From: Burkholderia latens | Lineage (GTDB): Bacteria > Pseudomonadota > Gammaproteobacteria > Burkholderiales > Burkholderiaceae | Reading direction: 5' to 3' | NCBI RefSeq assembly: GCF_001718795.1 | Contig: NZ_CP013438.1 | Span: 682,001-746,000, forward strand | DNA length: 64,000 nucleotides | Shown here: positions 33,998-55,427 of the stretch, piece by piece | Layout: each line of letters opens with the position of its first letter | How positions within the stretch are numbered: the stretch's first letter is position 1 | Notes under the pieces: model-generated | Seen by the model: the letters and a program-made list of their open reading frames with translations, nothing else | Told to the model about the DNA's origin: nothing | Database searches by the model: none | Position numbers and translations under genes: made by a program

Positions 33998-34093
33998 GGA
34001 AGGCATTCGTATCCGGTGGTACGGCCGGGCTTCAAACCCGGTTGGGGGTGTCAGACACTCCCGGGTCGGTTCGACTCCGGCTGCCTTCCGCCA
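33998..34093 (+). tRNA. selC: tRNA-Sec (anticodon TCA)
   Basis: 96 nt including a genomic CCA. The acceptor stem GGAAGGCA pairs with TGCCTTCC over 8 bp. The anticodon arm CCGGGCTTCAAACCCGG holds TCA. There is a long variable arm (TGGGGGTGTCAGACACTCCCG) and a GGTTCGACTCC T-arm. The 8-bp acceptor and long extra arm are specific to tRNA-Sec. It ends where the decayed accessory DNA begins, as selC is a known integration site for genomic islands in enterobacteria. Confidence 0.96.
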
Positions 34094-34181
34094 CATTGGT
34101 CTTTCCGGCTATTCCGAACTCATCCGTCAACGTCGACTGGCACGTGCACCGTGAAATTGCATAGGTCGGCAGCGGCGTCTG

Positions 34182-34376
34182 CGGATCGATGACACCTGGT
34201 TTCGCGTCGATCTCGTGTTTTTTCACCGGCGCTTGCGATGCCTGCTCATTATCGATTTGAAGGTCGGACGCTTCAGCTATGCGGACGCGGGCAGATGAAT
34301 CTCTACCTCGACTACACGCGTGAACATTGGACGAAGCTCGGCGAAAACTCCCCGGTTGGCTTGACGCTAACGCGTG
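34182..34376 (+). pseudogene. Frameshifted fragment of a DUF1016/YhcG-type PDDEXK nuclease
   Basis: About 65 codons survive. IDDTWFRVDLVFFHRRLRCL and LIIDLKVGRFSYADAG lie in one frame. After a missing base near 34290, GQMNLYLDYTREHWTKLGE and NSPVGL follow in the next frame. The D...D-x-K pattern (VDLV, IDLKVG) is that of the YhcG nuclease-like domain. The N-terminal two thirds and the extreme C-terminus are absent. It starts about 90 bp after selC and is the first relic of the accessory zone. Confidence 0.75.
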
Positions 34377-34400
34377 CCCGACGATTCGGCGCGGGTTGCG

Positions 34401-35340
34401 TCAGTCATAGGTCATCACAAAGGTCACCGAGGTATTCGCCGTGCCCGGCACCAAGGTAGCAGCGGTCTGTCGATACGCCGCCTTCAGCGGAATGTTGAAG
34501 TTGCCGCCGAGCTTGTCGTAATCGCCGTACTGCAGCTTGGTCTTCAGCGCGATTGGGTTACCCGAGCTATCGAGCAGCTGCAAGCCCACGCCCTTGGCGG
34601 TCGAGTCAGCATCGAGCGCCACGACCGACCGCGTTGCATCAACAATGGTCGTGTTGGGATTCAGCTGATACGACACCTTGCTGATGCCCTCGGGGCATTC
34701 CTTCAGGGCAATTGAAAAGCTGACGGGCGCCAGCGAAGAACCGATGCCCTTGAACTGCCCCACATAGTTCTGATCCCCCATCGATACATTGACGACCGGC
34801 GTCTTGCAGGAAAGTGTCGCGACGGAGGATTGATTGCGTGTTTTTACCGTAATTGGCTTGATCTGATTTTCAACGGTAATGTAACCGAGGATTCCGGAAG
34901 GAACACTCGCACCCGGTTCAACCGGGCCAATTTTCTTGATGCGCAGAGTCATTGGCTTCGATAGCCAACCCCAGGTGGTCTGCGAACTCGGATTCGAGAT
35001 GGCGGACGCAAAAGCGATATCGGGCAACCCGGGTTGGTCCGACTCATCGAAACTCCAAGCCAAGCCCGTCTTGCCGATCGGAAGGTCGGCGCTCGTTGCA
35101 GCGCTAGCGGCCGCACCTACCGAATTGACCATCCCGTGCTTGAAGTCACCGCGGCAGTTGAACCGGTTTTGGTTGGGCGCGGGAATACCTTCCGACACCC
35201 ACACCACCGCGCCCACCGGCGCATCGCGAGGCACCACGAGATCGGTGGGTACCGTAAATTCCATGCTCTGCGGGCCTTCGTTCTGTACGTAGCCGCACAA
35301 CGCGGCATAGGCTGCCCCGGGTTTGGCACAACCTATTGCC
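34401..35340 (-). pseudogene. Fimbrial adhesin-like gene, 5' truncated
   Basis: About 310 recognisable residues, from CAKPGAAYAALCGYVQNEGP to the C-terminal FVMTYD. The last part (about 140 aa, KITVKTRN-like strand region to the end) has the Cys pair and terminal aromatic strand of type 1 pilus subunits. The first part resembles a lectin-like adhesin domain. No signal peptide exists: upstream of about 35340 the frame runs antisense to the thioesterase fragment. The gene has lost its start and leader. Base composition is visibly less GC-rich than its surroundings, suggesting transfer. No usher or chaperone gene is nearby. Confidence 0.65.
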
Positions 35341-35686
35341 AAACAAGGCGTCCGCCTTCGGCAACGATACGGACGAAAAATACCCGGACGTGATGTCGAC
35401 GCCCGCGATGCTCGGCCTGATGGAGCGGGCATGTGCGGAAATCATGCGCGCCGAGCTGGAGGACGGGCAGTTGTCGGTGGGCGTCACGACTCAGCTGACG
35501 CACTCGGCACCAACACCGGTCGATGCGCAAGTAAGCGCCACCGCTAGCTTCCGCCGGCGGGAAGGCAACCTGTTCGTCTTCGACGTCGTCGTGCACGATC
35601 CGAAAGGCCAGGTTGGCAGCGGAACGCATGCACGCGCGATCGTCGATCGCACGGTCATAGAGAAAAGAGCCGCGTCGCGTCGTTAA
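35336..35686 (+). pseudogene. Thioesterase (FlK-like hot-dog) gene, 5' truncated
   Basis: The visible 116 codons begin NKASAFGNDTDEKYPDVMST and continue PAMLGLMERACAEIM, HSAPTPVDAQVSATASF and GTHARAIVDR. This is the pattern of the fluoroacetyl-CoA-thioesterase-like hot-dog family (STPAMLGLMERACAE and GTHxRxVI). About 20-25 N-terminal residues and the start codon are gone. Only a TTG at 35336 is available, without a ribosome site. Its 5' break coincides with that of the adhesin on the other strand, so one deletion could have removed both starts. Confidence 0.65.
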
Positions 35687-35755
35687 TCGCGCCTATGGTC
35701 GGCATGGCACGACAGTGCTGCTGACGGTCGTCGCACCGGCGGCACCGGGTTCAAC

Positions 35756-36874
35756 ATGAATGGTTTTTGCGCTGGTAAGCTGGGCGGATCTGCCACCGTG
35801 CTGCGAACGACTATGGACGAGCGAAGTCTGAGCGCTGTCGATCGATTCGCCGATCTCCGATCTGCGATCGATACGGATTGCTGGCGCAATGCGAGGGATG
35901 TTGCGGCGCAACGATTCGGCGCGTACGTGCTGACGTTGAGCGACGACGCAGTTCCGCTCGAAGCAGCGGACGACGATGCACGCGCGTTGGCAGCGCAATG
36001 CGGCATCGACCTCGGCGCGCTGGACCTCGACCAGCTGCTGCGTGATTGCCGCGATTCGCTGCGCGAACGAGGCAACGTAACGGTCGACCTGCCACTCGAT
36101 GTCGGAAGCAACCTGCGCTGCGCCACCACTCGCGTGTCGGTCGGATCGGCCAATGTCTATCTGCTCGCATTGCGGCGAGCGGAGCCCGACGCGCGATCGC
36201 TACACGACCTGCTCGCACTGCTCGACATCACACTAGGCGTGTCGCTGAAAAGTCATTTTGATCTCGTCGCGCACCAGACCCTCGTGGAGGAACAGAAGGC
36301 GATCATCGACCACATCGGCGACGGTCTGATGGTGCTCGGCCGAGGCGGCATCGTTCGTCACGCGAGTACCGTCGCCGGGCGGATTCTCGGAATCGATCCG
36401 GTGGCCAGCATCGGCCAGCCGCTCGAGGCGCTGATCGACTTCGAGCCGATCATTGCACCGATTTTCACGACGGGCGTGGGTTACGTCGATCGCGAACTCA
36501 TAATCGATTCGCCCGCGCGTCACCTGCACCTGATCGACACCGCGATTCCCGTGAAGAACAGCTGCGGGCAGGTGGTGTCCGTCGTCAACACGTTTCGCGA
36601 GATCAAGCGCGTGCGCAGCATTGCCGGCAAGTATGCGGGCAACTACGCGCGCTATACGTTCGAGAACATCGTCGGGAAGAGCGATAGTCTGCTCGACGCG
36701 ATCGGCGCTGCGCGCAAGGCGGCTCACGGTTCGGCGAATCTGTTGCTCAGCGGCGAAAGCGGCGTCGGCAAGGAGATTTTCGCGCAGTCGATCCACAACG
36801 CGAGCGCTCGCCACGCGCAACCGTTCATTGCGATCAACTGCGCCGCATTGCCGCACGACCTGATCGAAGAGCAC
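35756..36874 (+). pseudogene. PAS/sigma-54 activator, truncated inside the AAA+ domain and fused to sctK
   Basis: 373 codons. The N-terminal region has a PAS-like sensor (about 180-295, DHIGDGLMVLGRGGIVRHAS). The start of an AAA+ domain follows: YTFENIVGKSDSLLDAI, Walker A GESGVGKEIFAQSIHN and FIAINCAALPHDLIE. Family members continue with the ELFGYExGAFTGA loop, which contacts sigma-54. Here the sequence switches without a stop into the SctK-like reading frame. The GAFTGA loop, Walker B and DNA-binding helix-turn-helix are missing, so it cannot work as an activator. ATG 35813 is an alternative start. The reading frame stays open through the junction (628 codons in all). Confidence 0.8.
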
Positions 36875-37642
36875 ATGACGAACGCATACGACTCATATGA
36901 CGCAGCCGATGCGTACGACGCATCCGCCGACCCCGTTGCCGCCCCGAACGGCGCGACGCCGGCGGCCGTGGCCGCGAGACTGGCCGCGTACCATCGGCGC
37001 CGGCGTACGCTGTTCGACTGGATGCATCCGGCGTGCCGTGTGCGCGTGCCCTGTGCGGACCGACTCGACGCATGCAGCCCCGCGCAGGCCGAGGCGCTTG
37101 CCGATGCGCTGCTTGACGAATGGGGCATGCCGGCGCCGCCGCTTGCCGCGTTCGACGCGCCGGAAACGGCGCTTGCGTTGCTGCCGGCGCACGATTGTCT
37201 AGCCGTGTTCCGCTTGCGCGCGCTCGTGGAGCAGGCGGATGCATTGCGCGCCTGGATCGACCGGCCGCGTCGCGAGAAGTTGACCGGCTGGATCGGGGCG
37301 CGCGGCGTCAATCTGCTCTTCGCGCGCGGGCGTGAGCTTGCGGGCAATGCGCGCTCGCTTGCCGTGTGCGCACACCACGCGGCATCGGTCATGCAACTGC
37401 CGCTCGACGCGGCCGATGGCGATGCGCTCGCCTGGCTCGGCTTCCGGCTTTTCGCGCGCGACTGCCGATGGGCGCATGGCGGCCCGCTCGCGATCATGCG
37501 GTTGGCCATGCCGGCGCGCGACGATGAGGAGGCGTTGCCATCCCCTTCGATGCCGCTGTCGCTGCCGTCTTCGGCAGGCTCGAACCCGAGCCTTTCGATC
37601 GTCTCGCAGCTGCCCGACTTGTTTCCGGAGTGGTCATGGTGA
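36875..37642 (+). CDS. sctK: Type III secretion sorting-platform protein, SctK/HrpB4 family
   Basis: 255 aa from an internal ATG at 36875. RRRRTLFDWMHPACRVRVP and LFARGRELAGNARSLAVCAH resemble the HrpB4/SctK group of cytoplasmic sorting-platform proteins. The first about 20 residues are Asp/Tyr/Ala-rich (YDSYDAADAYD). The call leans on the fixed order K-L-N-O-T of hrpB-type operons. The open frame is continuous with the truncated sigma-54 activator upstream, so a chimeric product is also possible. Its original promoter and upstream genes (hrpB1, hrpB2 and sctJ in related loci) are gone. It overlaps sctL by 7 bp. Confidence 0.65.
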   Translation: MTNAYDSYDAADAYDASADPVAAPNGATPAAVAARLAAYHRRRRTLFDWMHPACRVRVPCADRLDACSPAQAEALADALLDEWGMPAPPLAAFDAPETALALLPAHDCLAVFRLRALVEQADALRAWIDRPRREKLTGWIGARGVNLLFARGRELAGNARSLAVCAHHAASVMQLPLDAADGDALAWLGFRLFARDCRWAHGGPLAIMRLAMPARDDEEALPSPSMPLSLPSSAGSNPSLSIVSQLPDLFPEWSW

Positions 37643-38640
37643 TCTGGTTACGCAATCCTCAGGCCGAAGGCAAGGACCTCGGCGTGGGCGTCGAAGGCGA
37701 CGTCCTGCGTCATGAACGCCTCGCGGCGATCGTCGAGATCGATGCGGCGTACGCCGAGATGCGCCGGCAATGCGACGAGGCGCTGGACGCGGCGCGCGCC
37801 CAGGCCCGCATGCTTCTGGACGAGGCCCGCGCGCGCGCGGACGAGCTCGTCGAGCGTGCCATGCGCGAGTTCGCGCAAGCGGCCGAGCGCGGCTACGACG
37901 ACGGCTTGCGGCGGGGGCTGACCGATTGGCACGAACGCGCGGCGGCCGCGCACGCCGAAGCCTGCCGGCTCGCGCCCGGACAGCACGACCGGCTCGCGGA
38001 GCTGGTGACGCTGGCGGTCGAGCAGATCGTTGCGTCGGTGGATCCCAAAGCGCTGTTCGCGCGCGCGGCCGCGACGGTGGAGCGCATCGTCGCCGACGGC
38101 AGCCCCGTTCATCTGCGTGTGCATCCGTCGGACCTGGCCGCGGCGAGCGCGGCCTTCGACGAAGCGGCCGCGGCGTGGCGCGAAGCCGGGCGCTCCGTGC
38201 GACTGTGCGTGGCGGCCGATGCGACGCTTGCGCCCGGCGCCTGCGTCGCCGAAACCGACCTGGGCGCGATCGACGCGAGCTTGTCGTTGCACTTGGCGGC
38301 GATGCGTGCCGCCCTGGCGCGCGCGGTGCGAAGCGTGGCGAAGGACCCATGGCGCGAGGCGCCGAATGCGCCGCCCGGGGAGGACGCAAGTGCCTTCGGT
38401 GCGCAGGCCGGTTCCACGGGCGATGCCGAGGTGCCGATAGACGAGTACGTCGTCGGAGCCGGCGATGACCAGGCGGACCCGGATCAGCGCGCGAACGACC
38501 GCGGCGACGGCGGCGGCGGCAACATGGGCGACGAAGAAGGTGGGCAAGGCGATGCCGCGGCCCTGCACATGGCGGGCGATCTGCGCGACGAGGGTTGGGC
38601 CGGTGCAGCGTATGCCGACGCCGACGCGATGTCCATCTGA
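37636..38640 (+). CDS. sctL: Type III secretion ATPase stator, SctL/HrpB5 family
   Basis: 334 aa from the ATG at 37636, with CGGAG upstream. The central part (about 30-240) is helical and rich in Ala/Arg/Glu (LDEARARADELVERAMREFA, LAELVTLAVEQIVASVDPKA), as in FliH/HrpE/YscL proteins that hold the SctN ATPase. From about residue 245 an acidic, Gly/Asp-rich tail of some 90 residues (DRGDGGGGNMGDEEGG) is not typical of the family. It may be a lineage-specific extension or reflect a lost stop. It overlaps the sctK stop. Confidence 0.75.
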   Translation: MVIWLRNPQAEGKDLGVGVEGDVLRHERLAAIVEIDAAYAEMRRQCDEALDAARAQARMLLDEARARADELVERAMREFAQAAERGYDDGLRRGLTDWHERAAAAHAEACRLAPGQHDRLAELVTLAVEQIVASVDPKALFARAAATVERIVADGSPVHLRVHPSDLAAASAAFDEAAAAWREAGRSVRLCVAADATLAPGACVAETDLGAIDASLSLHLAAMRAALARAVRSVAKDPWREAPNAPPGEDASAFGAQAGSTGDAEVPIDEYVVGAGDDQADPDQRANDRGDGGGGNMGDEEGGQGDAAALHMAGDLRDEGWAGAAYADADAMSI

Positions 38641-38691
38641 ACCGGTTCGTGCGCGGCACGAGGAACAAGACATGACAGGGAACGGAGCGCC

Positions 38692-40082
38692 ATGATCGAC
38701 ATCGCGGACGGTTTCGGAACCGATGAAGCGAGCGGGGTGCGCATCGCGCAGCCACGGGCCGTACGCGACTTCTCGGCGCTGATGGATGCGATGGAGCGCG
38801 AACTGCGCGCTCGCGCACAACCCGCGGCATGCGGCAAGGTGCAGGAAGTGATCGGCACGCTCGTACGCGTGTCGGGGCTCGACGCGACACTCGGCGAACT
38901 GTGCGAGCTGCGCTCGCCCGACGGCGCCTTGCTGCAGCGTGCCGAGGTAGTCGGCTTCTCGCGCGACGTCGCGCTGCTCTCGCCGTTCGGCCGGCTCGGC
39001 AGCGTGTCGCGCGCGACACGCGTGGTGGGACTGCGGCGTCCGCTTTCGCTGCGCATCGGCCCGCGCCTGCTCGGCCGCGTGATCGACAGCCTGGGCGAGC
39101 CGATCGACGGCAAGGGGCCGCTCGAATGCGACGAGTGGCAGCCCGTCATCGCCGATCCGCCCGATCCGATGTCACGGCCCGTCGTCGATACCCGATGCCG
39201 ACGGGCGTGCGCGTCGTCGACGGCATGATGACGCTGGCCGAGGGCCAGCGCATGGGCATCTTTGCGCCGGCAGGCGTCGGCAAGAGTACGTTGATGGGCA
39301 TGTTCGCGCGCGGCGCGCGCTGCGACGTCAACGTGATCGCGTTGATCGGCGAGCGCGGTCGCGAAGTGCGCGAATTCTGCGAGCACATTCTCGGGCCCGA
39401 GGGAATGGCCCGCTCGGTCGTCGTCTGCGCGACATCGGACCGCTCGTCGATCGAGCGTGCGAAGGCCGCTTATGCGGCAACGGCGGTGGCCGAATACTTC
39501 CGCGACCGCGGCCAGCGTGTGCTGCTGATGATGGATTCGCTGACGCGCTTTGCGCGCGCGCAGCGCGAAATCGGCCTGGCGATGGGCGAGCCGCCGACGC
39601 GGCGCGGTTTTCCACCGTCGATTTTCGCGGAGCTGCCGCGGCTGCTGGAGCGCGCGGGCCGCTCGGAGCTCGGCTCGATCACCGCTCTTTATACCGTGCT
39701 GGCCGAGGATGAATCGGGCGGCGACCCGATTGCCGAGGAAGTACGGGGCATTCTCGACGGGCACATGATTCTGTCGCGCGAGATCGCGGCACAGAACCGC
39801 TATCCGGCGATCGACGTGCTCGGCAGTCTTTCGCGCGTGATGACGCAGGTGGTGCCGCGCGAGCACGTGGCGGCGGCGGGACACATACGGCGGCTGATGG
39901 CCAAGCACAAGGAGGTCGAACTGCTGCTGCAGGTGGGCGAGTATCAGAGCGGCACCGATGCGCTCGCCGACGAAGCCATTGCGAAGATCGACGCGATTCG
40001 GGCTTTCCTCGGCCAGCCGACCGATCTGCTCGTCGACCCGAACGACACGCTCGCGGCTCTCGGCGAGATCGTGCAGTCGTGA
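38692..40082 (+). pseudogene. sctN: Type III secretion ATPase SctN with a single frameshift
   Basis: Frame 1 (38692-39228) encodes the N-terminal beta barrel up to PMSRPVVDT. The remainder, from [20 protein letters not shown] through Walker [20 protein letters not shown] and the C-terminal domain, lies in another frame and ends at 40082. One base is missing near 39190-39192 (GAT-AC-CCG-ATG). Restoring it gives a normal ATPase of about 463 aa. As given, translation ends after 178 aa without the nucleotide site. Reinitiation at ATG 39195 could make an ATPase lacking the N-terminal domain. A sequencing error cannot be excluded. Confidence 0.88.
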
Positions 40083-40097
40083 TGCCGGAGGCGAGCG

Positions 40098-40583
40098 ATG
40101 AAAGACCGCCGTGTCGCCGCATTCGAGCGCGTCCTCTCGCGTCGCCGCCAGCTCGATCGCAAGCTCAATGCGACGCTCGGCGGTTTGCGCGGCGAGCTGC
40201 AGGCGCTGATCGACGCGTTGGAGGAAAGCCGCGCGGCGGTGCGCGCGCATGCGGCCGGGCTCGCCGCGCACGACGGCAAGATCGACGCGCTGCTGGGCGG
40301 CGTTTCCTTCCGTGCGGACGAGTATCTGAAACTGCGCGAATTCCGCTCGCATGCGGCCGAGCAGCACGCGATGCTGGAGGCTCGCGCGGCGCAGGCGGGG
40401 CAGGCGTTGGCGGCGAAGGAGGCGCAGATCGGTGCGCTGCGCACGGAGATCGTGCGCAACCGTGCCCGCATCGACATCTACGGCAAGCGGCGCGACACGC
40501 TGGTCAAGGCGATCGAGCTCGCGATCGAGGACGCGCAGGACGAGGAAACATCGGAGAGCCGCCGGCCAGGCCCGGCGTTTTGA
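40098..40583 (+). CDS. sctO: Type III secretion stalk protein, SctO/HrpB7 family
   Basis: 161 aa, almost entirely predicted coiled coil: heptad-like runs such as LQALIDALEESRAAVRAHAA and QAGQALAAKEAQIGALRTEI. SctO proteins (FliJ-like) form the central stalk that couples the ATPase to the export gate. The ATG at 40098 follows GGAGG at good spacing, 16 bp after sctN. Assignment rests on size, coiled coil and position between sctN and sctT. Confidence 0.75.
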   Translation: MKDRRVAAFERVLSRRRQLDRKLNATLGGLRGELQALIDALEESRAAVRAHAAGLAAHDGKIDALLGGVSFRADEYLKLREFRSHAAEQHAMLEARAAQAGQALAAKEAQIGALRTEIVRNRARIDIYGKRRDTLVKAIELAIEDAQDEETSESRRPGPAF

Positions 40584-40634
40584 AGCGGCGGGCGCGCTCG
40601 CAAGCCGGCATCCATTTAACGACAGGCGACTGAA

Positions 40635-41441
40635 ATGAGCGAGATTACATTCGCATCGATCGAATCGAGCCATCAACTGGTCAGGTTTCTGATCGTGCTT
40701 GGCCTTTGCAGCGAGCGATTGATGGTCCTGATGATGATTTTTCCGCCGACGTCCGACAACGTCGTGCAAGGCCGCGTGCGCACCGCGCTCGCGCTTCTGT
40801 GGGGCAGCTTCATCGCCTACGGGCAGCGCGGCCTGCTCGAGCAGGGGGATGCGACGATGCTCGTGGGCATCGGGTTGAAGGAGGCGCTGATCGGCGTCGG
40901 CCTTGGCTTCGCTGCATCGACGGTGTTCTGGGCCGCCGAAAGCGTCGGCACGTACGTCGACGATCTGACCGGTTTCAACCAACTGCAGATGCAGAACCCG
41001 AGCCAGGGGCAGCAGACGTCGCTGACGTCCACGCTCCTGAGCCAGTTCGCGATCGCGGCGTTCTGGTGTCTCGGCGGCATGACGTTTCTGCTCGGCGCGA
41101 TCTACGAGTCGTATACCTGGTGGCCGCTCGCGAACCTCATGCCGGCCGGCGGATCGGTGCTCGAATCGTTCGTGCTGTCGAAGACCGACTCGCTGATGGA
41201 AACGGTGGCGAAGCTGGCCACGCCGATGATGCTGCTGCTGTTGCTGGTCGATATCGGCTTCGGCTTTACCGGGAAGGTGTCGCAAAAGCTCGATCTGCCG
41301 TCGTTGGCGCAACCGGTGAAAGGCGCGCTCACGATTCTGATGCTCGCCCTGATGGCGGCGATTTTCATCGATCAGGTCCGCGATCAGCTGTCGCTCGTGG
41401 GCATTGCGGCCGAGGCGAGGGCGCTCGCGGGCGGCAAGTGA
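40635..41441 (+). CDS. sctT: Type III secretion export gate protein SctT (HrcT)
   Basis: 268 aa with six to eight membrane segments. The region FAASTVFWAAESVGTYVDDL followed by TGFNQLQMQNPSQGQQTSLT is the conserved FliR/HrcT core. AKLATPMMLLLLLVDIGFGF is also typical. SctT is part of the inner-membrane export gate with SctR, SctS, SctU and SctV, none of which is in the window. The gene looks intact, though it can have no function unless a second cluster supplies the other parts. Confidence 0.85.
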   Translation: MSEITFASIESSHQLVRFLIVLGLCSERLMVLMMIFPPTSDNVVQGRVRTALALLWGSFIAYGQRGLLEQGDATMLVGIGLKEALIGVGLGFAASTVFWAAESVGTYVDDLTGFNQLQMQNPSQGQQTSLTSTLLSQFAIAAFWCLGGMTFLLGAIYESYTWWPLANLMPAGGSVLESFVLSKTDSLMETVAKLATPMMLLLLLVDIGFGFTGKVSQKLDLPSLAQPVKGALTILMLALMAAIFIDQVRDQLSLVGIAAEARALAGGK

Positions 41442-41516
41442 AACGCGCGGCATGCGCGAGCGAGCGCAAGTACGCGTTCGCCGTTGGCGATTGGCTGAAA
41501 CAGCCTGGAGAAGAAC

Positions 41517-41906
41517 ATGATCGAGACGTTGACCGACAACGCGATCGTTACGGGGATGATGGACGTGCTGTGGGCCGGTGCGGCGCTGGATACGTTTTCG
41601 GACGTTCAGGACCTGCTCGATGCAATGGCGGTGCTGCGTCCCGGGAACGGCGAAATGCGCGAGGTGCTGGCGTGGTGGCATGTGCGTGCACGCGCCTGGG
41701 GCGAGGCGCTGAGCGATCTGCGCCGGGTGGAACGCGATGGCATGCTGTCGTCGCGCGGCATGGCGCTCGCGGCTGTATGTCTGTACGCGTTGGGCGATGC
41801 ATCGTGGCGCACCTATGCGTACGCGGCGGCGTATCAATCCGACGACCCGATGGCGACGCGCACAGCACAGGCGCTGCTCGCAGCGCCCGCGATCGGGCGC
41901 GGATAG
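41517..41906 (+). CDS. HrpB1/HrpK family type III secretion protein
   Basis: 129 aa. The form IETLTDNAIVTGMMDVLWAG, with ADVQDLLDAMAVLRPGNGE-like helix pairs, matches the HrpB1/HrpK family found in Ralstonia, Xanthomonas and Burkholderia type III loci. It is TPR-like in composition. The ATG at 41517 has GGAGAAG upstream. In the hrpB operon as I know it, hrpB1 is the first gene. Here it comes last, after sctT, so it may be a paralogue or a rearranged copy. Confidence 0.7.
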   Translation: MIETLTDNAIVTGMMDVLWAGAALDTFSDVQDLLDAMAVLRPGNGEMREVLAWWHVRARAWGEALSDLRRVERDGMLSSRGMALAAVCLYALGDASWRTYAYAAAYQSDDPMATRTAQALLAAPAIGRG

Positions 41907-42014: not shown

Positions 42015-42614
42015 GGGATGGTGGGCAGGAGGCTTTCTGCGATTGCGGCAGGCTTGCGTGGCGGATTCGTGCGAGCGATGAGCAGCGTCTGCTGACTTCC
42101 GCCAACGCATAATCTCCTCCCCATGACGCACGAGTGTCGGCGGCGGCGCACCTGCGCAGTTGGCGCGTGATGCGACGGTGAGAATCCCGCAGGTCGAACG
42201 CCCGCCGACGCGTGTCCCGCACGCAGATGGCGCGACCTCGCGAACAAATCGAGTGGGCGAAAGCGATCCGGGTGAGTCGCCGAGCGTGCCGATGTCTATC
42301 AGGGATTCCCCGGCCAGCTGGCAATTTGCGCTGTTTCGTCTCCCCGCGCGCCCGCACCGCGCTTCTGCGCCTATCTTCCGGCACGCCGCCCCGATTATTT
42401 GCATTTCGCGAATGGCGCGTTCGCCGGTTGTTCCATACCCGATCCGCGTCGGCGCACCTATCGTTCGGGCGTCGGCTGATTGAATTCGACGCCTGCAACC
42501 GCAAGGCGGCCGCCGATTCCTCGCGACTCGCGTCGCATTCGCACACCAAAGACAACGGATCCGGTTCATGCACGGGCGCTGCGGCACGCGCCGGCCGGCT
42601 CCACGGAGACAGAC
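42015..42614. other. 600-bp gap upstream of the MFS gene
   Basis: No gene with a ribosome site or family motif is visible. The long open frames here are high-GC antisense shadows. The promoter of the following transporter should be in the last 150 bp, but I cannot point to boxes. Confidence 0.45.
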
Positions 42615-43865
42615 ATGAAAGCAAACGAGTGGGATACCGCGTACGAGTGGAAGGCGGTCACGCTTCTGGCGCTCGGTTTCGGGCTGGTCGGCCTCGACCG
42701 CTGGCTGATCGCGCCGCTGTTCCCGTCGATCATGAAGGACCTCAACCTGACTGCGCAGGACGTCGGAAACTGCATCGGCGTGCTCGGCCTGTCGTGGGGC
42801 GTCTTCGCCGCGCTGATGGGCGGCATCTCCGACAAGTTCGGCCGCCGCAAGGTGCTGATTCCCGCGATCGTCGCGTTCTCGCTGCTGTCGGGCTTTTCGG
42901 GGCTCGCGGGCGGGCTGCTCGGCCTGATCGCGATTCGCGGCCTGATGGGCGTCGCCGAAGGCTCGTTCTGCCCGACCAGCTTCGCGGCGACCGCAGACGC
43001 GTCGCATCCGAGGCGACGCGGCCTCAACCTCGGGTTGCAGCAAAGCGGCTTCGCGCTGTTCGGGCTCGCGCTGTCGCCGATCATCGCAACGCAACTGCTC
43101 GCGTTCGTGTCGTGGCGCTGGGTGTTCGCGCTGGTCGCGGTGCCCGGCCTGATCCTCGGCGCAATCATGTTTTTCGTGATCCGCGAGCCGAAACGCGCGC
43201 AGGACGCCGTGTCGGAACATGCGCCGGCTTCGCTCGGCCATGTGCTCAAGAGCCGCAACATTCTCGTCGCGATGGCCGCATTGTGTTGCGCGATGACGGG
43301 CGTGTTCGTGCTCGGCGCGCTGCTGCCGCTGTACCTGACGGACTACCTGGCGCTCGGCACGCAGAAGATGGGGCTCGTCGTGTCGGCAATCGGCTTCGGC
43401 GGCTTTCTGGGGCAGTTCGGGCTGCCTGGACTGTCGGACCTGGTCGGCCGCCGCGTCGCGAGCATCGTCGGCTTTGCGGGCACGGCCGTGATGCTGTACA
43501 TCTTCCGTGGCCTCGGCCCGCAACCCGTCGAGCTGTTCATGGTGCTGTTCGTCGCGTCGTTCTTCACGCTCGGGCTCGTGTCGTTGCTGTCGGGGCCGGT
43601 CGCAACCGAGGCCGCGCCCGTTGGCCTCGTGTCGACGTCGATCGGCGTCGTGGTCGGCTGCGGCGAGATTTTCGGCGGCGGCATCGCGCCGGCGATGGGC
43701 GGCTATGTGGCGGCGCACTTCGGGATCCAGAACATCCTGTGGCTGCCGATGTGCGCGGTGCTGCTCGGCATCGTGGTCAGCATGCTGCTGCGCGAGACGG
43801 CGCCGGCCGTGTTGCAGCGCCGCGTGCGCGTTCGGGCGGAACTGACGGCCGGCAAGCAGCCGTAA
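42615..43865 (+). CDS. MFS transporter, probable organic/aromatic acid permease
   Basis: 416 aa with 12 membrane segments. The start ATG at 42615 has GGAGACAGAC upstream. Motif A is GGISDKFGRRKVLIPA in the loop between helices 2 and 3. A second partial copy, LSDLVGRRVAS, lies in the middle of the C-terminal half, and DRWLIAPLFPSIMKDL is in helix 1. It is a proton-coupled secondary carrier of the inner membrane. It lies on the same strand before the LysR gene and the hydroquinone operon, so import of an aromatic precursor is plausible but unproven. Confidence 0.85.
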   Translation: MKANEWDTAYEWKAVTLLALGFGLVGLDRWLIAPLFPSIMKDLNLTAQDVGNCIGVLGLSWGVFAALMGGISDKFGRRKVLIPAIVAFSLLSGFSGLAGGLLGLIAIRGLMGVAEGSFCPTSFAATADASHPRRRGLNLGLQQSGFALFGLALSPIIATQLLAFVSWRWVFALVAVPGLILGAIMFFVIREPKRAQDAVSEHAPASLGHVLKSRNILVAMAALCCAMTGVFVLGALLPLYLTDYLALGTQKMGLVVSAIGFGGFLGQFGLPGLSDLVGRRVASIVGFAGTAVMLYIFRGLGPQPVELFMVLFVASFFTLGLVSLLSGPVATEAAPVGLVSTSIGVVVGCGEIFGGGIAPAMGGYVAAHFGIQNILWLPMCAVLLGIVVSMLLRETAPAVLQRRVRVRAELTAGKQP

Positions 43866-43986
43866 CGCGGCGCAAGCGCGTCGCGCGATTGACACCCTTG
43901 CGGTGACAGAGTGACGCCTTTCGCATGACCCAACCGGCCGGCGGCTGCGGTTAGACTGCGGGTTTCGCTTCCAGCAAGGGCGCGGT

Positions 43987-44916
43987 ATGGACCGGTTTCT
44001 GAGCATCGAGGCATTCGTCAGGGTCGCCGAGGCCAGCAGTTTCGCGGAAGCGGCCCGACAGCTCGGGGTCACGAGTTCGGTCGTGACGAACCGCATCCAG
44101 CAGCTGGAGAAATTCGTCAACGCGCCGCTATTCCATCGCAGCACGCGCCACGTCCGGTTGTCCGAGGTTGGCGAGACCTTTTACCGGGAATGCGCGGAGG
44201 TGGTCGGGCGGGTGAACGAGCTCACCGACCAGATGCGCGAGCTACGCGCGACACCGACCGGGCGATTGCGCATCCAGATGCTGCCCGGCTTCGCGCTCGA
44301 TCATTTCGGTGTGCCGCTCGCCGAATTCAATCGCCGCTACCCGGGCATCCAGCTAGACATCATCGTCAATGACCGTGTCGTGGACCCTGTCGAAGAAGGG
44401 TTCGACATCGCGTTCCAGATCTTCCCGCCGATTTCCGAGTCGCTGATCGAGCGGCGCCTGTTCGTCGTGCGGCGCCTGTTCTGCGCGTCGCCCGCGTACG
44501 TCGCGGCGCATGGTGCGCCACAACATCCGCGCGAATTGCTGCAGCACACCACGGCGCTTTATTCAGGTTATCCGTCACGCAATCGCTGGACGCTGACGCG
44601 CGGCGACGAAGTCGTCGAAATGGAGTTGCCCGGCATGATCCGCTCGAACTCCGTGCATTTGCTGCGCGAGTATGCGCTGACGGGCGGCGGCGTTGTATGT
44701 CTGCCGACGCTGGTCGCGAGCGACGCGCTCGTCGCGGGCCGCCTGGTGCCGATTCTCACCGACTTCAAGATCGCGCCGCTGAGCTTCGCGGCCGTTTATC
44801 CCGCAACGCAGCGACAGGCGTTGAAGGTCAAGGCGCTGGTCGAGTTCCTTGCCGAATACATCGGCGACGAATCGCCGTGGGACCGGCCGCTTCTGGAGCG
44901 CGGCTGGGTCCGCTGA
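43987..44916 (+). CDS. LysR-type transcriptional regulator of the hydroquinone operon
   Basis: 309 aa. The N-terminal winged helix-turn-helix (about 1-60) contains SFAEAARQLGVTSSVVTNRI. The ligand-binding domain (about 90-300) carries the LDIIVNDRVVDPVEEGFDIA segment. It lies 114 bp before hapC in the same direction, unlike the usual divergent layout, though that gap holds a promoter-like element and a 6-bp inverted repeat. Inference: it controls hapCDEFGHI in response to hydroquinone or a pathway intermediate. Confidence 0.85.
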   Translation: MDRFLSIEAFVRVAEASSFAEAARQLGVTSSVVTNRIQQLEKFVNAPLFHRSTRHVRLSEVGETFYRECAEVVGRVNELTDQMRELRATPTGRLRIQMLPGFALDHFGVPLAEFNRRYPGIQLDIIVNDRVVDPVEEGFDIAFQIFPPISESLIERRLFVVRRLFCASPAYVAAHGAPQHPRELLQHTTALYSGYPSRNRWTLTRGDEVVEMELPGMIRSNSVHLLREYALTGGGVVCLPTLVASDALVAGRLVPILTDFKIAPLSFAAVYPATQRQALKVKALVEFLAEYIGDESPWDRPLLERGWVR

Positions 44917-44966
44917 GGGCGGCGATTATTCGCGAAACGCAAATGCCGTAGTCGCGGTCCGTTGCC

Positions 44967-45017
44967 TTGTTGACCGGCGCGGTCGCCCCTAAAGTTGAAT
45001 CCGACAAGCGGTTCAAC
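44967..45017 (+). promoter_or_regulatory. Candidate hapC promoter and operator
   Basis: TTGTTG (44967-44972), a 17-bp gap and TAAAGT (44990-44995) form a candidate promoter. TAAAGT is inside CGCCCCTAAAGTT (44984-44996), which recurs exactly upstream of the IclR-controlled operon at 52989-53001. Overlapping its end, GTTGAA-N12-TTCAAC (44994-45017) is a perfect inverted repeat. GGAG follows just before the hapC start at 45031. Confidence 0.5.
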
Positions 45018-45030
45018 TCAGGAGACAGCA

Positions 45031-45525
45031 ATGACCGACACGGCCTTTCATACCGTCTTCGGTTCGCTCGACTGCTACACGCGGGGCGACATCGAAATCA
45101 CCAGCGGCAGCGCGAAGCACTACGCGTTCTCGAACGTCTTCGACATCGCATCGAAGTCGGCCCCCTACGAGAAAGTCGTCGCCGGCAAAAACCTCGAATA
45201 CGTGATCGAAGTGCTGCGCACCGACGGCGAGTCGCCGTGGTTCGCGTGCGCGCACGACGAGTTCGCGATCCAGATGGACGGCGAAGTCCGCATCGAATTC
45301 ATCAAGCTCGACAACCCGCCGGCCGCCGGCCGCGGCACCGTGAGCGCTGGCTCCCACCCGGCGGGCCGCGAGATGGGTTACGTCGTGCTGCGCACCGGGC
45401 ATCAGGCACTGCTGCCGGCCGGCTGCGCGTATCGCTTCATCGCGAGCAGGCCTGGCGTCGTGCTGGTGCAGACCGTCCTTAGCGAACTGTCGGTGGAGAA
45501 GTGGGCCGACATCTGCGTGCACTGA
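45031..45525 (+). CDS. hapC: Hydroquinone 1,2-dioxygenase small subunit (HapC/PnpC1-like)
   Basis: 164 aa from ATG 45031, with GGAGACAGCA upstream. The protein looks cupin-like: FACAHDEFAIQMDGEVRIEF and LLPAGCAYRF flank the middle. Size and gene order match the small subunit of the two-component hydroquinone dioxygenase (about 18 kDa with a 38-kDa partner), an Fe(II) enzyme that opens hydroquinone to 4-hydroxymuconic semialdehyde. The call relies on the following six genes, which match the rest of the pathway. I could not run a homology search. Confidence 0.72.
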   Translation: MTDTAFHTVFGSLDCYTRGDIEITSGSAKHYAFSNVFDIASKSAPYEKVVAGKNLEYVIEVLRTDGESPWFACAHDEFAIQMDGEVRIEFIKLDNPPAAGRGTVSAGSHPAGREMGYVVLRTGHQALLPAGCAYRFIASRPGVVLVQTVLSELSVEKWADICVH

Positions 45526-45567
45526 TCCGTTCGATCGAAACCATTCAAATATTTCCGGAGACACGTT

Positions 45568-46587
45568 ATGGCCACCCTCGAGACCGTCGATCTTTCTGCA
45601 GGCTTCGCTGCCGATCTGGTGCAGGCTACGGAAGCCGATGCCGTCACCGGTTACCGCCGCTTCCAGCTCGGCGAATTCGCGTTCCAGCGCGACGAGTACT
45701 TCGTGACGATCAGCTGGCCCGCGAAAGGCCGGACCCGCACGCACGCGATACCTGCGGATGCGTTCCTGCGCGCAATGATGCGTGACGTCGCATGGGGCTT
45801 CTTCTACGGCTGGGTGAATTTCGATCACGTGTTCGGCACGCGCAATCACTACGGCAAGGTCGACGTCTATGCGGGAACGTTCAACGGCATCCTGAAGGAG
45901 GCTGGCGTCGACTACACCGAGACGTTCGACACGCCGACGATCATGGCGACCTTCAAGGCGATGCTGCACGACTGGACGAACGAAGGCTTCGATCCGTTCG
46001 CGGCGCCGGAAGAGACGGGCACCGCATTCGGCCGCAAGCATGGCGAAAACGGTTCTGCGATCGAACGCACGCGCATCGCGACGCGCCGCATGCCGGGCCT
46101 CGAAGGCGATTCGCCGCTGCGCGACGCGCTGCCGGTCAATCGCGCGTTTCTCGACGTCGATCAGGAAGAGCCTGAAGTGCACGTGAACCCCGGCTTCGAA
46201 GGCGAACTGCACGCGTTCAACCTGTTCAAGTACCTGTCCCGCTCCGACGTAACGTGGAATCCGTCCGTTACGTCGGTTTGCGGGCGCAGCCTGTTCTGCC
46301 CGACGACCGAGGAATTCATTCTGCCGGTGTTCCATGGCAATGACCGCGTTGAGTGGTTCCTGCAACTGTCCGACGAAATCGTGTGGGACATCGGCGACAA
46401 GAACACCGGCGCACCGCGCGCGCGGATCACGATGCGCGCGGGCGACATCTGCGCGATGCCCGCCGACATCCGGCATCAAGGCTACTCGACGAAACGCTCG
46501 ATGCTGCTGGTATGGGAAAACGCGACGCCGGACCTGCCGCAGCGATACGAGAGCGGCGAGCTTGCGCCGTATCCGATCGAGTTCTAA
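45568..46587 (+). CDS. hapD: Hydroquinone 1,2-dioxygenase large subunit (HapD/PnpC2-like)
   Basis: 339 aa, the length I recall for HapD. The C-terminal third is cupin-like, with DRVEWFLQLSDEIVWDIGDK, MRAGDICAMPADIRHQGYST and WENATPDLPQRYESGELAPY, resembling 3-hydroxyanthranilate-dioxygenase-type cupins. His and Glu residues here are candidate Fe(II) ligands. It starts 42 bp after hapC with GGAGA upstream and would form the heterotetramer with it. Confidence 0.75.
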   Translation: MATLETVDLSAGFAADLVQATEADAVTGYRRFQLGEFAFQRDEYFVTISWPAKGRTRTHAIPADAFLRAMMRDVAWGFFYGWVNFDHVFGTRNHYGKVDVYAGTFNGILKEAGVDYTETFDTPTIMATFKAMLHDWTNEGFDPFAAPEETGTAFGRKHGENGSAIERTRIATRRMPGLEGDSPLRDALPVNRAFLDVDQEEPEVHVNPGFEGELHAFNLFKYLSRSDVTWNPSVTSVCGRSLFCPTTEEFILPVFHGNDRVEWFLQLSDEIVWDIGDKNTGAPRARITMRAGDICAMPADIRHQGYSTKRSMLLVWENATPDLPQRYESGELAPYPIEF

Positions 46588-46619
46588 GCCACGCTCGCGC
46601 GAAAAATCGAGGACGATTC

Positions 46620-48086
46620 ATGCAAACCCAACTCTTCATCGACGGGCGCTTTGTCGACGCCGTCGACCGCGGCACGATCGACGTGCTCAACCCGCACGAC
46701 GGCTCGCTGATCGCGCAGATCGCCGCCGCCACCGCCGCCGACGTGGACCTCGCTGTCGATGCGGCGACCCGCGCGTTTTCGAAATGGTCGGCGCTGCCGG
46801 CGGCCGATCGCGGCCGGCTGCTGTTGCGTCTCGCCGATGCGATCGAAGCCAATGCCGAGGAACTCGCACAACTCGAATCGCTGGACACCGGCCATCCGAT
46901 CCGCGATTCGCGCGCGCTCGACGTGCCGCGCACGGCCGGCTGCTTCCGCTACTTCGGCGGGATGGCCGACAAGCTGCAAGGCTCGGTGATACCGGTCGAA
47001 ACCGGCTTCCTCAACTATGTGCAGCGTGCGCCGATCGGCGTCGTCGGCCAGATCGTGCCGTGGAATTTTCCGCTGATGTTTACCAGCTGGAAGATGGGCC
47101 CGGCCCTCGCCGCCGGCAACACGGTCGTGCTGAAACCGTCGGAGATCACGCCGCTGTCGACGCTGCGGATCGTCGAGCTGATGGCCGAGGTCGGATTCCC
47201 TGAGGGCGTCGTCAATATCGTTCCCGGCTATGGACACACCGCCGGCCAGCGGCTTGCCGAACACCCGGGTGTGGGCAAGATCGCGTTTACCGGTTCGACC
47301 GCGACGGGCCGCCGGATCGTCGATGCGTCGCAAGGCAATCTGAAGCGCGTGCAGCTGGAACTCGGCGGCAAGGGCGCGAACATCGTGTTCGACGATGCGA
47401 ATCTCGATGCGGCCATCAACGGCGCCGCATGGGCGATCTTCCACAACCAGGGGCAGGCCTGCATCGCGGGTTCGCGTCTCGTATTGCACGAACGTATCGC
47501 GGATGAATTCCTCGAGCGCTTCGTGTCGCTCGCTGCGTCGATCCGCGTCGGCAATCCGCTGGACCCGGACACCGAGATGGGGCCGCTCACGTCGAAACAG
47601 CATCTCGAGCGCGTGCTGTCGTTCGTCGACGTCGCGCGCGAGCAGGGCGGCCGCGTGCTCGCCGGCGGCAGCGCACCGCAGGATTCCGCGCTCGCGAACG
47701 GCTACTACGTGCGCCCGACCGTCATCGAAGCGAAGAGCGCGGCCGACCGCATCGCACAGGAGGAAGTGTTCGGGCCGTTCGTCACCGTGCTGCGCTTCGG
47801 CAGCGACGACGAGGCGCTGTCCATCGCCAACGCGACCGAATACGGGCTCGGCAGCGGCTTGTGGACCAGGGATCTGTCCCGCGCGCACCGGATGGCGTCG
47901 CAAATCGACGCGGGCATGTGCTGGATCAACTGCTACAAGCGCGTGAACCCGGGCAGCCCGTTCGGCGGCATTGGCAAGTCGGGCTACGGCCGCGAGATGG
48001 GGTTCGAGGCGATGCACGACTATACGGAAGCGCGCTCGGTGTGGGTCAATGTCGACGGCAACGTGCCGCCGCACTTCAAGCGCTGA
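46620..48086 (+). CDS. hapE: 4-Hydroxymuconic semialdehyde dehydrogenase (HapE-like)
   Basis: 488 aa of the NAD(P)-dependent aldehyde dehydrogenase family. PWNFPLMFTSWKMGPALAAG and ELGGKGANIVF (general base Glu) are present, the catalytic Cys is in FHNQGQACIAGSR (about residue 285), and EEVFGPFVTVL is conserved. In this operon it would oxidise 4-hydroxymuconic semialdehyde to 4-hydroxymuconate, which tautomerises to maleylacetate. Substrate identity is inferred from neighbours. It starts 33 bp after hapD. Confidence 0.83.
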   Translation: MQTQLFIDGRFVDAVDRGTIDVLNPHDGSLIAQIAAATAADVDLAVDAATRAFSKWSALPAADRGRLLLRLADAIEANAEELAQLESLDTGHPIRDSRALDVPRTAGCFRYFGGMADKLQGSVIPVETGFLNYVQRAPIGVVGQIVPWNFPLMFTSWKMGPALAAGNTVVLKPSEITPLSTLRIVELMAEVGFPEGVVNIVPGYGHTAGQRLAEHPGVGKIAFTGSTATGRRIVDASQGNLKRVQLELGGKGANIVFDDANLDAAINGAAWAIFHNQGQACIAGSRLVLHERIADEFLERFVSLAASIRVGNPLDPDTEMGPLTSKQHLERVLSFVDVAREQGGRVLAGGSAPQDSALANGYYVRPTVIEAKSAADRIAQEEVFGPFVTVLRFGSDDEALSIANATEYGLGSGLWTRDLSRAHRMASQIDAGMCWINCYKRVNPGSPFGGIGKSGYGREMGFEAMHDYTEARSVWVNVDGNVPPHFKR

Positions 48087-48093
48087 GGCCGCA

Positions 48094-49161
48094 ATGGAGC
48101 GCTTCGTCTACCAGGGAACGCCTTCGCGCGTCGTGTTCGAATGGGGTGCGCTCGAACGGCTGCCCGACGAACTGAGCGCGCTCGGTGCGCAGCGTGCGTT
48201 GATCCTGTCGACGCCGGAGCAGCAACCGCTCGCGGCGCGCCTCAGCGACGTGCTCGGCGAACGTGCGGCCGGCGTGTGTGCGCAGGCCGTGATGCACGTG
48301 CCGGTCGAAGTCGCACGTGCGGCGCGCGAGATGGCGGCCGACCTGGATGCGGACTGCTGCATCGCGATCGGCGGCGGCTCGACGATCGGGCTTGGCAAGG
48401 CGATCGCGCTCGAATCGTCGCTGCCGATCGTCGCCGTGCCGACCACGTACGCGGGCTCGGAGATGACGCCGATCTATGGGCTCACGGAAGGCCGGCTTAA
48501 GCGCACCGGGCGCGACGCCCGCGTGCTGCCGCGCACGGTGCTGTACGACCCCTCGCTGACGCTGTCGCTGCCGCCGGCCATCTCGGCCGCGTCCGGCGTC
48601 AATGCGATCGCGCACGCGGTCGAGGCGCTCTATGCGCAAGATGCGAACCCGGTGATCAGCCTGATGGCGGAGGAATCGATCCGGGCCCTCGGCGAAGCAT
48701 TGCCTGCGATCGTGCGCACGCCCGACGATCGCGAGATGCGCAGCCGCGCGCTTTATGGCGCATGGCTTGCCGGCACGTGCCTCGGCGCCGTCGGCATGGC
48801 GTTGCATCACAAGCTGTGCCATACGCTCGGCGGCACGTTCAACTTGCCGCATGCGCAGACGCACGCCGCGATGTTGCCGCATACCGCGCACTACAACCAT
48901 GCGGCGGCGCCCGATGCGCTGCAACGTGTTGCGCGGGCGCTGGGCGGTAGCGACGCGGCAGAAGCCGGCCGACTGTTGTTCGCGCTGAACCGGCAGCTTG
49001 GCTTGCAGGCGGCGCTTGCCGACCTCGGGATGCCGGAAGCGGGCCTCGACGAAGCCGCCGACCTCGCATGCCGGAATCCGTATGCGAACCCGCGGCCGAT
49101 CGAACGCGCGCCGATTCGCGCATTGCTTCAGCGCGCGTGGGAAGGGCGCGAGCCGCAGTGA
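48094..49161 (+). CDS. hapF: Maleylacetate reductase (HapF-like)
   Basis: 355 aa of the iron-containing alcohol dehydrogenase family, short form. CIAIGGGSTIGLGKAIALES and VPTTYAGSEMTPIYGLTEGR are the nucleotide-binding hallmarks of maleylacetate reductases, and GMALHHKLCHTLGGTFNLPH is the metal-site-like histidine region. It reduces maleylacetate to 3-oxoadipate with NAD(P)H, which then enters the beta-ketoadipate pathway. It starts 8 bp after hapE. Confidence 0.92.
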   Translation: MERFVYQGTPSRVVFEWGALERLPDELSALGAQRALILSTPEQQPLAARLSDVLGERAAGVCAQAVMHVPVEVARAAREMAADLDADCCIAIGGGSTIGLGKAIALESSLPIVAVPTTYAGSEMTPIYGLTEGRLKRTGRDARVLPRTVLYDPSLTLSLPPAISAASGVNAIAHAVEALYAQDANPVISLMAEESIRALGEALPAIVRTPDDREMRSRALYGAWLAGTCLGAVGMALHHKLCHTLGGTFNLPHAQTHAAMLPHTAHYNHAAAPDALQRVARALGGSDAAEAGRLLFALNRQLGLQAALADLGMPEAGLDEAADLACRNPYANPRPIERAPIRALLQRAWEGREPQ

Positions 49162-49186
49162 GCGGCCTGCATTGAAGGAGACGAAC

Positions 49187-50059
49187 GTGACGAATGATCA
49201 GGATGACGGCGATACGCGGCTGACCGAGCAGGTCGTCGCGAGCTTCGACGGTACGCCGAACCCGCGCTTGCGCGTGCTGATGCAAAGCCTCGTGCGGCAC
49301 CTGCATGCGTTCGTTCGCGAGACGGAGCTGACCGAAGCCGAATGGATGGCCGCGATTCGCTTCCTGACCGAAACCGGGCAGATGTGCGACGACGTCGTGC
49401 GCCAGGAGTTCATTCTGCTGTCGGACACGCTCGGCGTGTCGATGCTGGTCGATGCGATCAACCATCGATTTGCGACCGGCGCGACGGAAACGACGGTGTT
49501 CGGCCCGTTCTACATCGAAGGGATGCCCGACCGCGCGTATGGCGAGAACATGGCGTTCACGCCAGGCACGCCGGCGCTCGTGCATGGCCGCGTGCTGACG
49601 ACCGACGGTGCGCCGGTGCCGGGCGCCGTGCTCGACGTCTGGCAGACCGCCGACAACGGCATGTATTCCGGACAGGACAGCGCGCAACCGCACGGCAACC
49701 TGCGCGGCCGTTACCGGACGGATGCCGACGGACGTTACGCGATCACGACGATTCTGCCGGTCAGCTATCCGATCCCGAGCGACGGCCCCGTCGGGAAGAT
49801 GCTCGACGCGACCGGACGGCACCCGTGGCGGCCCGCGCATCTGCATTTCATGATCGACGCGCCGGGCCATCGGACGCTCGTCACGCATCTGTTTGACGAG
49901 GCGGACGAATACCTGGAATCGGATGCGGTGTTCGGCGTGAAGCCGTCGCTGATGGTTGCATACCGTCCGCGCGAGGCCGGCGATGAGCTGGCGCGCCGGT
50001 TCGGACTCAGCGGCGCGTACCGCGAAGCGACGTACGACTTCGTGCTCGACCGGAGTTGA
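49187..50059 (+). CDS. hapG: Intradiol ring-cleavage dioxygenase, probable hydroxyquinol 1,2-dioxygenase (HapG-like)
   Basis: 290 aa from the GTG at 49187, with GGAG nearby. The N-terminal helical dimer domain is followed by the beta-sandwich catalytic domain: TVFGPFYIEGMPDRAYGENM, DVWQTADNGMYSGQD and HLHFMIDAPGHRTLVTHLFD. Tyr (PFY; Y-R-T) and His (HLHF) residues are the Fe(III) ligands of the family. It would turn hydroxyquinol into maleylacetate, giving the operon a second entry to the same intermediate. Confidence 0.88.
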   Translation: MTNDQDDGDTRLTEQVVASFDGTPNPRLRVLMQSLVRHLHAFVRETELTEAEWMAAIRFLTETGQMCDDVVRQEFILLSDTLGVSMLVDAINHRFATGATETTVFGPFYIEGMPDRAYGENMAFTPGTPALVHGRVLTTDGAPVPGAVLDVWQTADNGMYSGQDSAQPHGNLRGRYRTDADGRYAITTILPVSYPIPSDGPVGKMLDATGRHPWRPAHLHFMIDAPGHRTLVTHLFDEADEYLESDAVFGVKPSLMVAYRPREAGDELARRFGLSGAYREATYDFVLDRS

Positions 50060-50064
50060 CCGAC

Positions 50065-50714: not shown

Positions 50715-50928
50715 ATCGGTCGCCCGGGTAGCGCGGCGAGCTGGGTGAAACGGGAAATCGGCGTGATCTTCTCGGCTTCCATGAATCAGTATTGCGAAAT
50801 AAATTTTGATGTTCCGCGCTGAATCGGACCTGATCGGGGCTGGAGAGCGTGTTGTTTCAACGAGTATCGGGCGATTCCCCTTTAAGCAGCGGACGCTCGC
50901 TCAAATTTCCAAAAAAGACGGAGACACA

Positions 50929-52017: not shown

Positions 52018-52053
52018 TGCGGCGGCAACGGGCATGCCGCCCCGCGCGCACGA

Positions 52054-52875: not shown

Positions 52876-52915
52876 GGCAGGCAGTTCCTTGGGTTGACGA
52901 TCGCCTGACTATATC

Positions 52916-53035: not shown

Positions 53036-53048
53036 AGTGAGGCGCCCA

Positions 53049-55345: not shown

Positions 55346-55427
55346 CGCCGCTGCGATCCACCGAACGAACAACGCATCCCGGCCGCGCGTCCGCGCGGGC
55401 GCGGAATGCGCATCCACGGAGACAACC

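What the first reader, a model, noticed from the sequence alone, without database searches (positions are those of the whole stretch)
34094..41906. A decay zone of accessory genes abutting the tRNA-Sec gene
Directly after selC there are at least five damaged loci in a row: a frameshifted DUF1016 fragment, a headless adhesin, a headless thioesterase, a sigma-54 activator cut in its AAA+ domain, and a frameshifted type III ATPase. Intact-looking type III genes are mixed in. This is the pattern of an integrated island being eroded by deletions. selC is known as an island integration site in E. coli, where LEE also carries a type III system, but no kinship with LEE is implied here. I saw no integrase and no second copy of the tRNA 3' end.
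Basis: partly seen in the sequence, partly recalled or inferred. Interest (0 to 1): 0.75.

Follow-up and report, generated by a model that had tools for sequence, protein, structure and literature searches.

The report
Collapsing secretion-gene island at selC

Summary
The window is collinear with other Burkholderia up to selC (33998-34093). All five damaged loci are real, but the headless adhesin and headless thioesterase are two sides of one joint (about 35346). Unrelated pieces meet: a nuclease (DUF1016) scrap, an adhesin, a thioesterase/sigma-54 activator piece that relatives hold in a conserved context elsewhere, and the last 5 kb of an Hrp-type secretion cluster. Five of 65 congeneric genomes hold that cluster with its full core set; in four it lies downstream of selC. 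There is a degenerate one: 41976-42104 copies a conserved end element, found in 21 of 65 genomes, which in 19 of 25 copies examined ends in 14-15 of the last 15 selC bases, and in 13 of 15 placeable cases lies in the selC region in the same direction. So the remnant is about 34094-42104. Its secretion genes still show ordinary constraint (17 replacement, 51 silent private changes), so the collapse is recent. Against a simple story: in two relatives the cluster lies beyond such an end. selC as an insertion site is known; this secretion island and end element I did not find in print.

The parts
33998..34093 (+). selC (tRNA-Sec); its 3' end is the insertion site and left border
   Evidence: ARAGORN and Rfam RF01852, 78.4 bits; collinearity with relatives ends here or within about 40 bases
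34094..34137 (+). leftover of a left-end sequence of the kind that follows selC in several relatives
   Evidence: printed side by side; closest is L004, whose blast match runs to 34134
34160..34364 (+). scrap of a DUF1016/PDDEXK nuclease gene, frame broken
   Evidence: 93% DNA to G001, whose 352-aa gene matches PF17761 and PF06250; 92.7-94.7% to PDDEXK nuclease genes on 7 Burkholderia plasmid records
34401..35345 (-). fimbrial adhesin without its first 23 residues (start codon and most of the likely signal peptide)
   Evidence: PF00419; P0121, named Burkholderia latens: 312 of 314 residues identical
35336..35686 (+). FlK-like thioesterase ORF; homology to relatives starts at about 35347, about 19 codons lost
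   Evidence: PF22636; alignment to G053, G012, G009, G032
35756..36871 (+). PAS/sigma-54 activator, N-terminal part only, cut in the AAA+ domain; the open frame runs on into HrpB4
   Evidence: PF00158 model positions 1-70 of 168; relatives run on
36872..37642 (+). HrpB4, whole, start codon directly at the joint
   Evidence: PF09502 above its gathering score
37636..38640 (+). SctL (HrpE/YscL), whole
   Evidence: TIGR02499 above its cut-off; same C-terminus as in G043, G023, G016
38692..40082 (+). SctN ATPase, broken into two overlapping frames near codon 167
   Evidence: intact 463-aa copies exist (P0164: 130 member sequences)
40098..40583 (+). HrpB7, whole
   Evidence: PF09486 above its gathering score
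40635..41441 (+). SctT, whole
   Evidence: TIGR01401 above its cut-off
41517..41906 (+). HrpB1-like protein, whole
   Evidence: PF09613 above its gathering score
41976..42104 (+). degenerate island right end; 42090-42104 is the imperfect copy of the selC 3' end
   Evidence: homologous to elements in 21 of 65 genomes
42279..57873 (+). outside the remnant: two displaced catabolic gene clusters (42279-52026, 52050-57873)
60324..64000 (.). conserved right flank that follows the selC region in relatives

Best explanation
The interval 34094-42104 is what is left of one or more genomic islands inserted by site-specific recombination at the 3' end of selC on chromosome 2 of a Burkholderia cepacia complex strain (probably B. 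latens or a close sister). Shown: sister genomes carry a full core set of an Hrp-type type III secretion cluster downstream of selC, in three of them between selC and the same right flank on one contig; the window keeps only the last 5 kb of it; a degenerate copy of a conserved end element with an imperfect selC 3' end closes the interval; four joints cut four genes (nuclease, adhesin, thioesterase, activator). Inferred: an integrase, now lost, recombined selC with a matching site; later joints not guided by that site removed the rest of the cluster and brought in or trimmed pieces of other loci; the SctN frame break followed or accompanied this. Without an integrase gene and with an imperfect right end the remnant should no longer be able to excise, and it cannot build a secretion apparatus from this locus alone.
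For: Collinearity stops at selC. SctU, HpaP, Q, R, S, HrpD5, HrpB1, SctJ (families named for the G040 genes), SctV and SctC are in all 5 genomes with the 5-kb match; tblastn of all of these but SctC finds none in the window. In 4 of those 5 the cluster is downstream of selC on the same contig (G040, G043, G023, G016), in G040, G043 and G023 with the flank behind it. End element: 27 matches in 21 of 65 genomes; of 15 on a contig with selC and/or the flank, 13 are placed and directed as expected, 2 are not; 12 lie on contigs with neither. Of 25 copies examined, 19 match the last 15 bases of selC at 14 or 15 positions. In G055 the flank begins 75 bp after it. A tyrosine recombinase faces selC at about 90 bp in L001, L009, L020 (full length) and L006 (cut). 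Window-private changes: 17 replacement, 51 silent; four intact relatives pooled 41 and 94, Fisher p 0.51; neutral expectation 2.59 to 1, assuming transitions twice as likely.
Against: Order: in G023 and G043 the end element lies between selC and the secretion cluster, and no selC-like 15-mer was found in the fetched stretches around the cluster's end in G040, G043 or G023. So the cluster need not have been cargo of the element's island; the window's remnant may be composite. In G007 the cluster is on another contig than selC. No integrase in the window. The window's selC-like end has 2 mismatches in 15 and by itself is within chance. Pieces come from several loci, more than plain deletion needs. 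No listed protein shares the sigma-54/HrpB4 joint, so an assembly error there is not excluded. The whole genome is not held, so the missing genes could sit elsewhere.
Confidence: 0.75

Rival explanations
1. The secretion cluster was split, not lost: a rearrangement moved the other half elsewhere in the genome, and both halves still work together.
For: The remaining genes show no relaxed constraint; the joint at 36871 spares the HrpB4 start codon; two other gene clusters stand here that relatives hold elsewhere.
Against: SctN is in two frames. The genome could not be searched, so this is not excluded.
Confidence: 0.12
2. Old stable remnant: the truncated genes have stood like this for long, perhaps with new roles.
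For: Nothing positive was found.
Against: The relatives examined do not share the joints; the share of the window's branch spent without constraint is estimated at under about 5% (rough bootstrap); the adhesin is 312 of 314 identical to an intact copy.
Confidence: 0.03
3. Assembly or sequencing artefact: chimeric joints and a false frame break in a draft genome.
For: No listed protein shares the fused frame (best 120 listed of 568, none covering more than 79% of it); pieces come from several loci.
Against: The end element lies where an island should end, and the left flank is collinear with relatives over some 30 kb. Neither tests the joints themselves.
Confidence: 0.1

Closest known systems
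tRNA-site genomic islands of Burkholderia pseudomallei (tRNA-SSR, Tuanyok et al. 2008, PMC2612704; passages read)
   Same: Insertion at the 3' end of a tRNA gene with a short direct repeat of that end downstream; the authors also note islands next to tRNA genes without the repeat.
   Different: Whole-word look-ups of Sec, tRNA-SeC and selenocysteine found nothing in its main text; the present remnant is in a cepacia-complex genome and is broken.
Burkholderia thailandensis phage PhiE067 at selC (PMC7266877; passages read)
   Different: A prophage, not a secretion island; the 129-bp end element (G055 copy) has no match in the phage collection.
LEE of Escherichia coli at selC (recalled; no LEE sequence was compared)
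   Same: A type III secretion gene set in an island at selC.
   Different: The genes here match HrpB1/B4/B7, HpaP and HrpD5 families; the LEE-associated Pfam model PF13327 matches HrpB7 only below its cut-off.
Type III secretion clusters of B. cenocepacia (PMC12580581; abstract and passages read)
   Same: Nine cluster types, some lacking structural genes, thought by the authors to be acquired independently.
   Different: Look-ups of genomic island and selenocysteine found nothing in its main text.

Membership tests
tRNA-site genomic island | insertion exactly at a tRNA 3' end, absent or different in relatives | tested here: met
   selC-to-flank distance 1.1 to 185 kb in the 40 of 65 genomes where it could be taken from one contig
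tRNA-site genomic island | direct repeat of the tRNA 3' end at the far border | tested here: met
   13 of 15 at 42090-42104, backed by homology to 129-bp elements ending there; degenerate
tRNA-site genomic island | integrase gene | tested here: not met
   none in the window; present beside selC in some relatives. Hence called a remnant, not an island
tRNA-site genomic island | able to excise or move | not testable with these tools
   experiment needed; not expected without integrase
Hrp-type (HrpB1/B4/B7) type III secretion cluster | family-specific genes hrpB1, hrpB4, hrpB7 | tested here: met
   PF09613, PF09502, PF09486 above Pfam gathering scores; the matching NCBIfam models TIGR02561, TIGR02560, TIGR02559 are hit but below their curated cut-offs
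Hrp-type (HrpB1/B4/B7) type III secretion cluster | complete core set (SctC, D, J, N, Q, R, S, T, U, V) | tested here: not met
   of the proteins probed only HrpB4, N (broken), HrpB7, T, HrpB1 in the window, plus SctL by family; SctC was not probed in the window. Met in the five relatives
LEE | LEE-type genes at selC | tested here: inconclusive
   best family matches are Hrp or generic Sct models; no LEE sequence was compared

The most novel reading that the evidence does not exclude
selC of the cepacia complex is an array site: islands with one conserved right end stack one behind another, and the array acts as a trap in which pieces of distant chromosomal loci (small scraps and whole catabolic clusters) accumulate by unguided joints while big cargo such as a secretion system is lost in one or a few recent steps.
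Probability: 0.2. Interest if true: 0.62.

Novelty: new member of a known kind. Interest (0 to 1): 0.45.

Why it matters
It gives a worked case of inserted DNA caught soon after collapse, with intact counterparts, both borders and a rough clock. The conserved end element offers a sequence handle to find and delimit selC islands across Burkholderia, where the selC-to-flank distance varies from 1 to 185 kb. Secretion clusters downstream of selC in both Escherichia (recalled) and Burkholderia, apparently from different families, would be parallel use of one insertion site.

Tried and rejected
A 26-kb insertion reaching to 60.3 kb: suggested by the flank; dropped as the border when the end element was found at 42104; 42279-57873 are separately displaced clusters. 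Chance as the whole account of the selC-like 15-mer at 42090: my first reading, given up. A frame break in SctL from its odd C-terminus: rejected, relatives end alike. A KS9-type integrase as owner of the end element: a 451-aa integrase lies upstream of the element in G053 and is 67.6% identical to that of phage KS9, but of the 25 element loci examined only one other (G048) shows a fragment directly upstream, the element has no match in the phage collection and the first 3 kb of KS9 shows no selC-like site; the owning integrase stays unknown. Relaxed constraint in the remnant: not seen. A plasmid copy of the interval: no record covers 80%. In phages only 97 bases at selC were searched; eight weak matches, two of them to a tRNA-Sec in Pseudomonas phage records. 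PMC7320009: its selC hit was the word SELCON.
Full report
What the window is. Its Rfam, SelB and protein matches place it in Burkholderia. No whole genome is held for it. G023 is its nearest relative in the searches made: top hit of 65 genomes for the DNA at selC and at the right flank, and 95% over window 3.0-10.8 and 10.9-14.9 kb, best of the ten genomes searched there. The adhesin matches a protein named Burkholderia latens at 312 of 314 residues, so B. latens or a sister is likely (inference).

The damaged loci. All five are there. The nuclease scrap is about 206 bp, frame broken against its intact 352-aa relative in G001; close annotated relatives lie on Burkholderia plasmids. The adhesin and the thioesterase, head to head, each lost their first codons at one joint near 35346. 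The sigma-54 activator stops at about 36871, where the frame runs straight into HrpB4, whose start codon is kept. SctN is in two frames.

Where the pieces come from. The thioesterase/sigma-54 piece matches a locus that is largely collinear over about 14-18 kb between G053 and each of G012, G009 and G032; in G012 it is 1.2 Mb from selC. All five hold the rest of the cluster: SctU, V, HpaP, Q, R, S, HrpD5, HrpB1, SctJ by tblastn of the G040 proteins (families) and SctC within the same stretch. In G040, G016, G023 and G043 the 5-kb stretch lies about 47, 44, 159 and 142 kb downstream of selC, in G043 across the record's start. In G040, G023 and G043 the right flank follows; in G016 the contig ends just after it; in G007 it is on another contig.

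selC as a site. One search prints the bases after selC for 42 sequences (22 named loci and 20 fetched intervals, some the same genome twice): most part company at the CCA, and a subset shares a left-end family to which the window's first 45 bases belong. By a motif search, L001, L009 and L020 have a full-length tyrosine recombinase facing selC at about 90 bp and L006 a cut one (families). Second copies of the selC end (2 or fewer mismatches in 22) occur in L011, L012, G021, G046 and G011; those in L012 and G046 are followed by the window's right flank. A weak case with 4 mismatches in L005 is not counted; exact second copies of the last 15 bases are also in G062 and G033. From selC to the flank the distance is 1.1 to 185 kb, median 18 kb, in 40 genomes; I left out 25 of 65 whose anchors were missing, on different contigs or more than 300 kb apart.

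The right end. A search with 41900-42300 hit nine of 65 genomes, eight within 41976-42108 and one (G001) at 42183-42253. Six of these copies, aligned, end in the selC 3' end. Searching with the G055 copy gave 27 matches in 21 of 65 genomes. Of the 25 examined (two short matches were not), 19 match selC's last 15 bases at 14-15 positions and 6 at 9-13. Placement: 8 between selC and flank in the same direction, 5 consistent on contigs with one anchor, 2 in the opposite direction, 12 not placeable. A B. multivorans record gives a further, named case: the element at 1036469-1036571(-) with an exact 15-base end, about 41 kb downstream of selC at 1077177(-). The sequence after the element in G023 and G012 resembles the left-end family after selC, as stacked islands would show (inference). 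Against a simple nesting: in G023 (195360) and G043 (2999779) the element lies between selC and the secretion cluster, while in the window it lies after the cluster's remnant.

Clock. dN/dS of the remnant genes against the five relatives is 0.19-0.28, against 0.20-0.30 among the relatives. Private single-base codon changes are 17 replacement and 51 silent in the window and 41 and 94 in four intact relatives pooled (p 0.51). Single relatives range from 0.31 to 0.78 replacement per silent; G023 is the highest (window against G023, p 0.07). Unconstrained change would give about 2.6. Gapped columns, codons with more than one change, stops, the first HrpB4 codons and the codons at the SctN switch were left out. 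A bootstrap puts the unconstrained share of the window's branch under about 5%; this is rough.

Beyond the remnant. 42279-52026 and 52050-57873 are gene clusters for catabolism that relatives hold elsewhere in conserved contexts; in two B. multivorans records the first is on a 550- or 744-kb replicon. Why they stand here is unexplained, and whether they are moved or copied cannot be told without the genome.

Literature. Of the papers opened, only PMC7266877 names selC as a Burkholderia integration site (passages); PMC2612704 describes the tRNA mechanism (passages); PMC12580581 and PMC13391677 treat the secretion systems (passages). The listings of searches showed no title or abstract on this secretion island at selC or on the end element; most listed papers were not opened, and papers outside the library were not seen.

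Noticed in passing
window 42279-52026 and 52050-57873: Two catabolic clusters (hydroquinone-type dioxygenase pathway; HMG-CoA lyase/CoA-transferase/MFS/amidohydrolase) that relatives hold at other, conserved places stand side by side with sharp ends 23-35 bp apart.
   Followed up: partly
L012:12033-13006; L011:12042-13079; G021 and G046 after selC: A cassette of about 0.9-1.0 kb between selC and a second selC 3' end; it carries a Fic-domain gene in L012, and ORFs with a similar N-terminus are seen in G021 and G046. In L011 the whole selC is duplicated at the contig end.
   Followed up: partly
window 35756-37642: A 628-aa open frame that fuses the sigma-54 activator piece to HrpB4; no listed protein covers more than 79% of it.
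   Followed up: yes
window 42183-42253: A 71-bp piece 83% identical to G001:C3:143618-143689, between the end element and the first catabolic cluster, origin unknown.
   Followed up: no
L206 / G009:C5:172864-172991: In G009 the end element stands about 8 kb upstream of the thioesterase/sigma-54 locus, a piece of which is inside the window's remnant; may be coincidence.
   Followed up: no
window 25453-25511 and 3461-3633: A SECIS_3 element upstream of selB/selC, and the Burkholderia sRNA Bp2_287.
   Followed up: no
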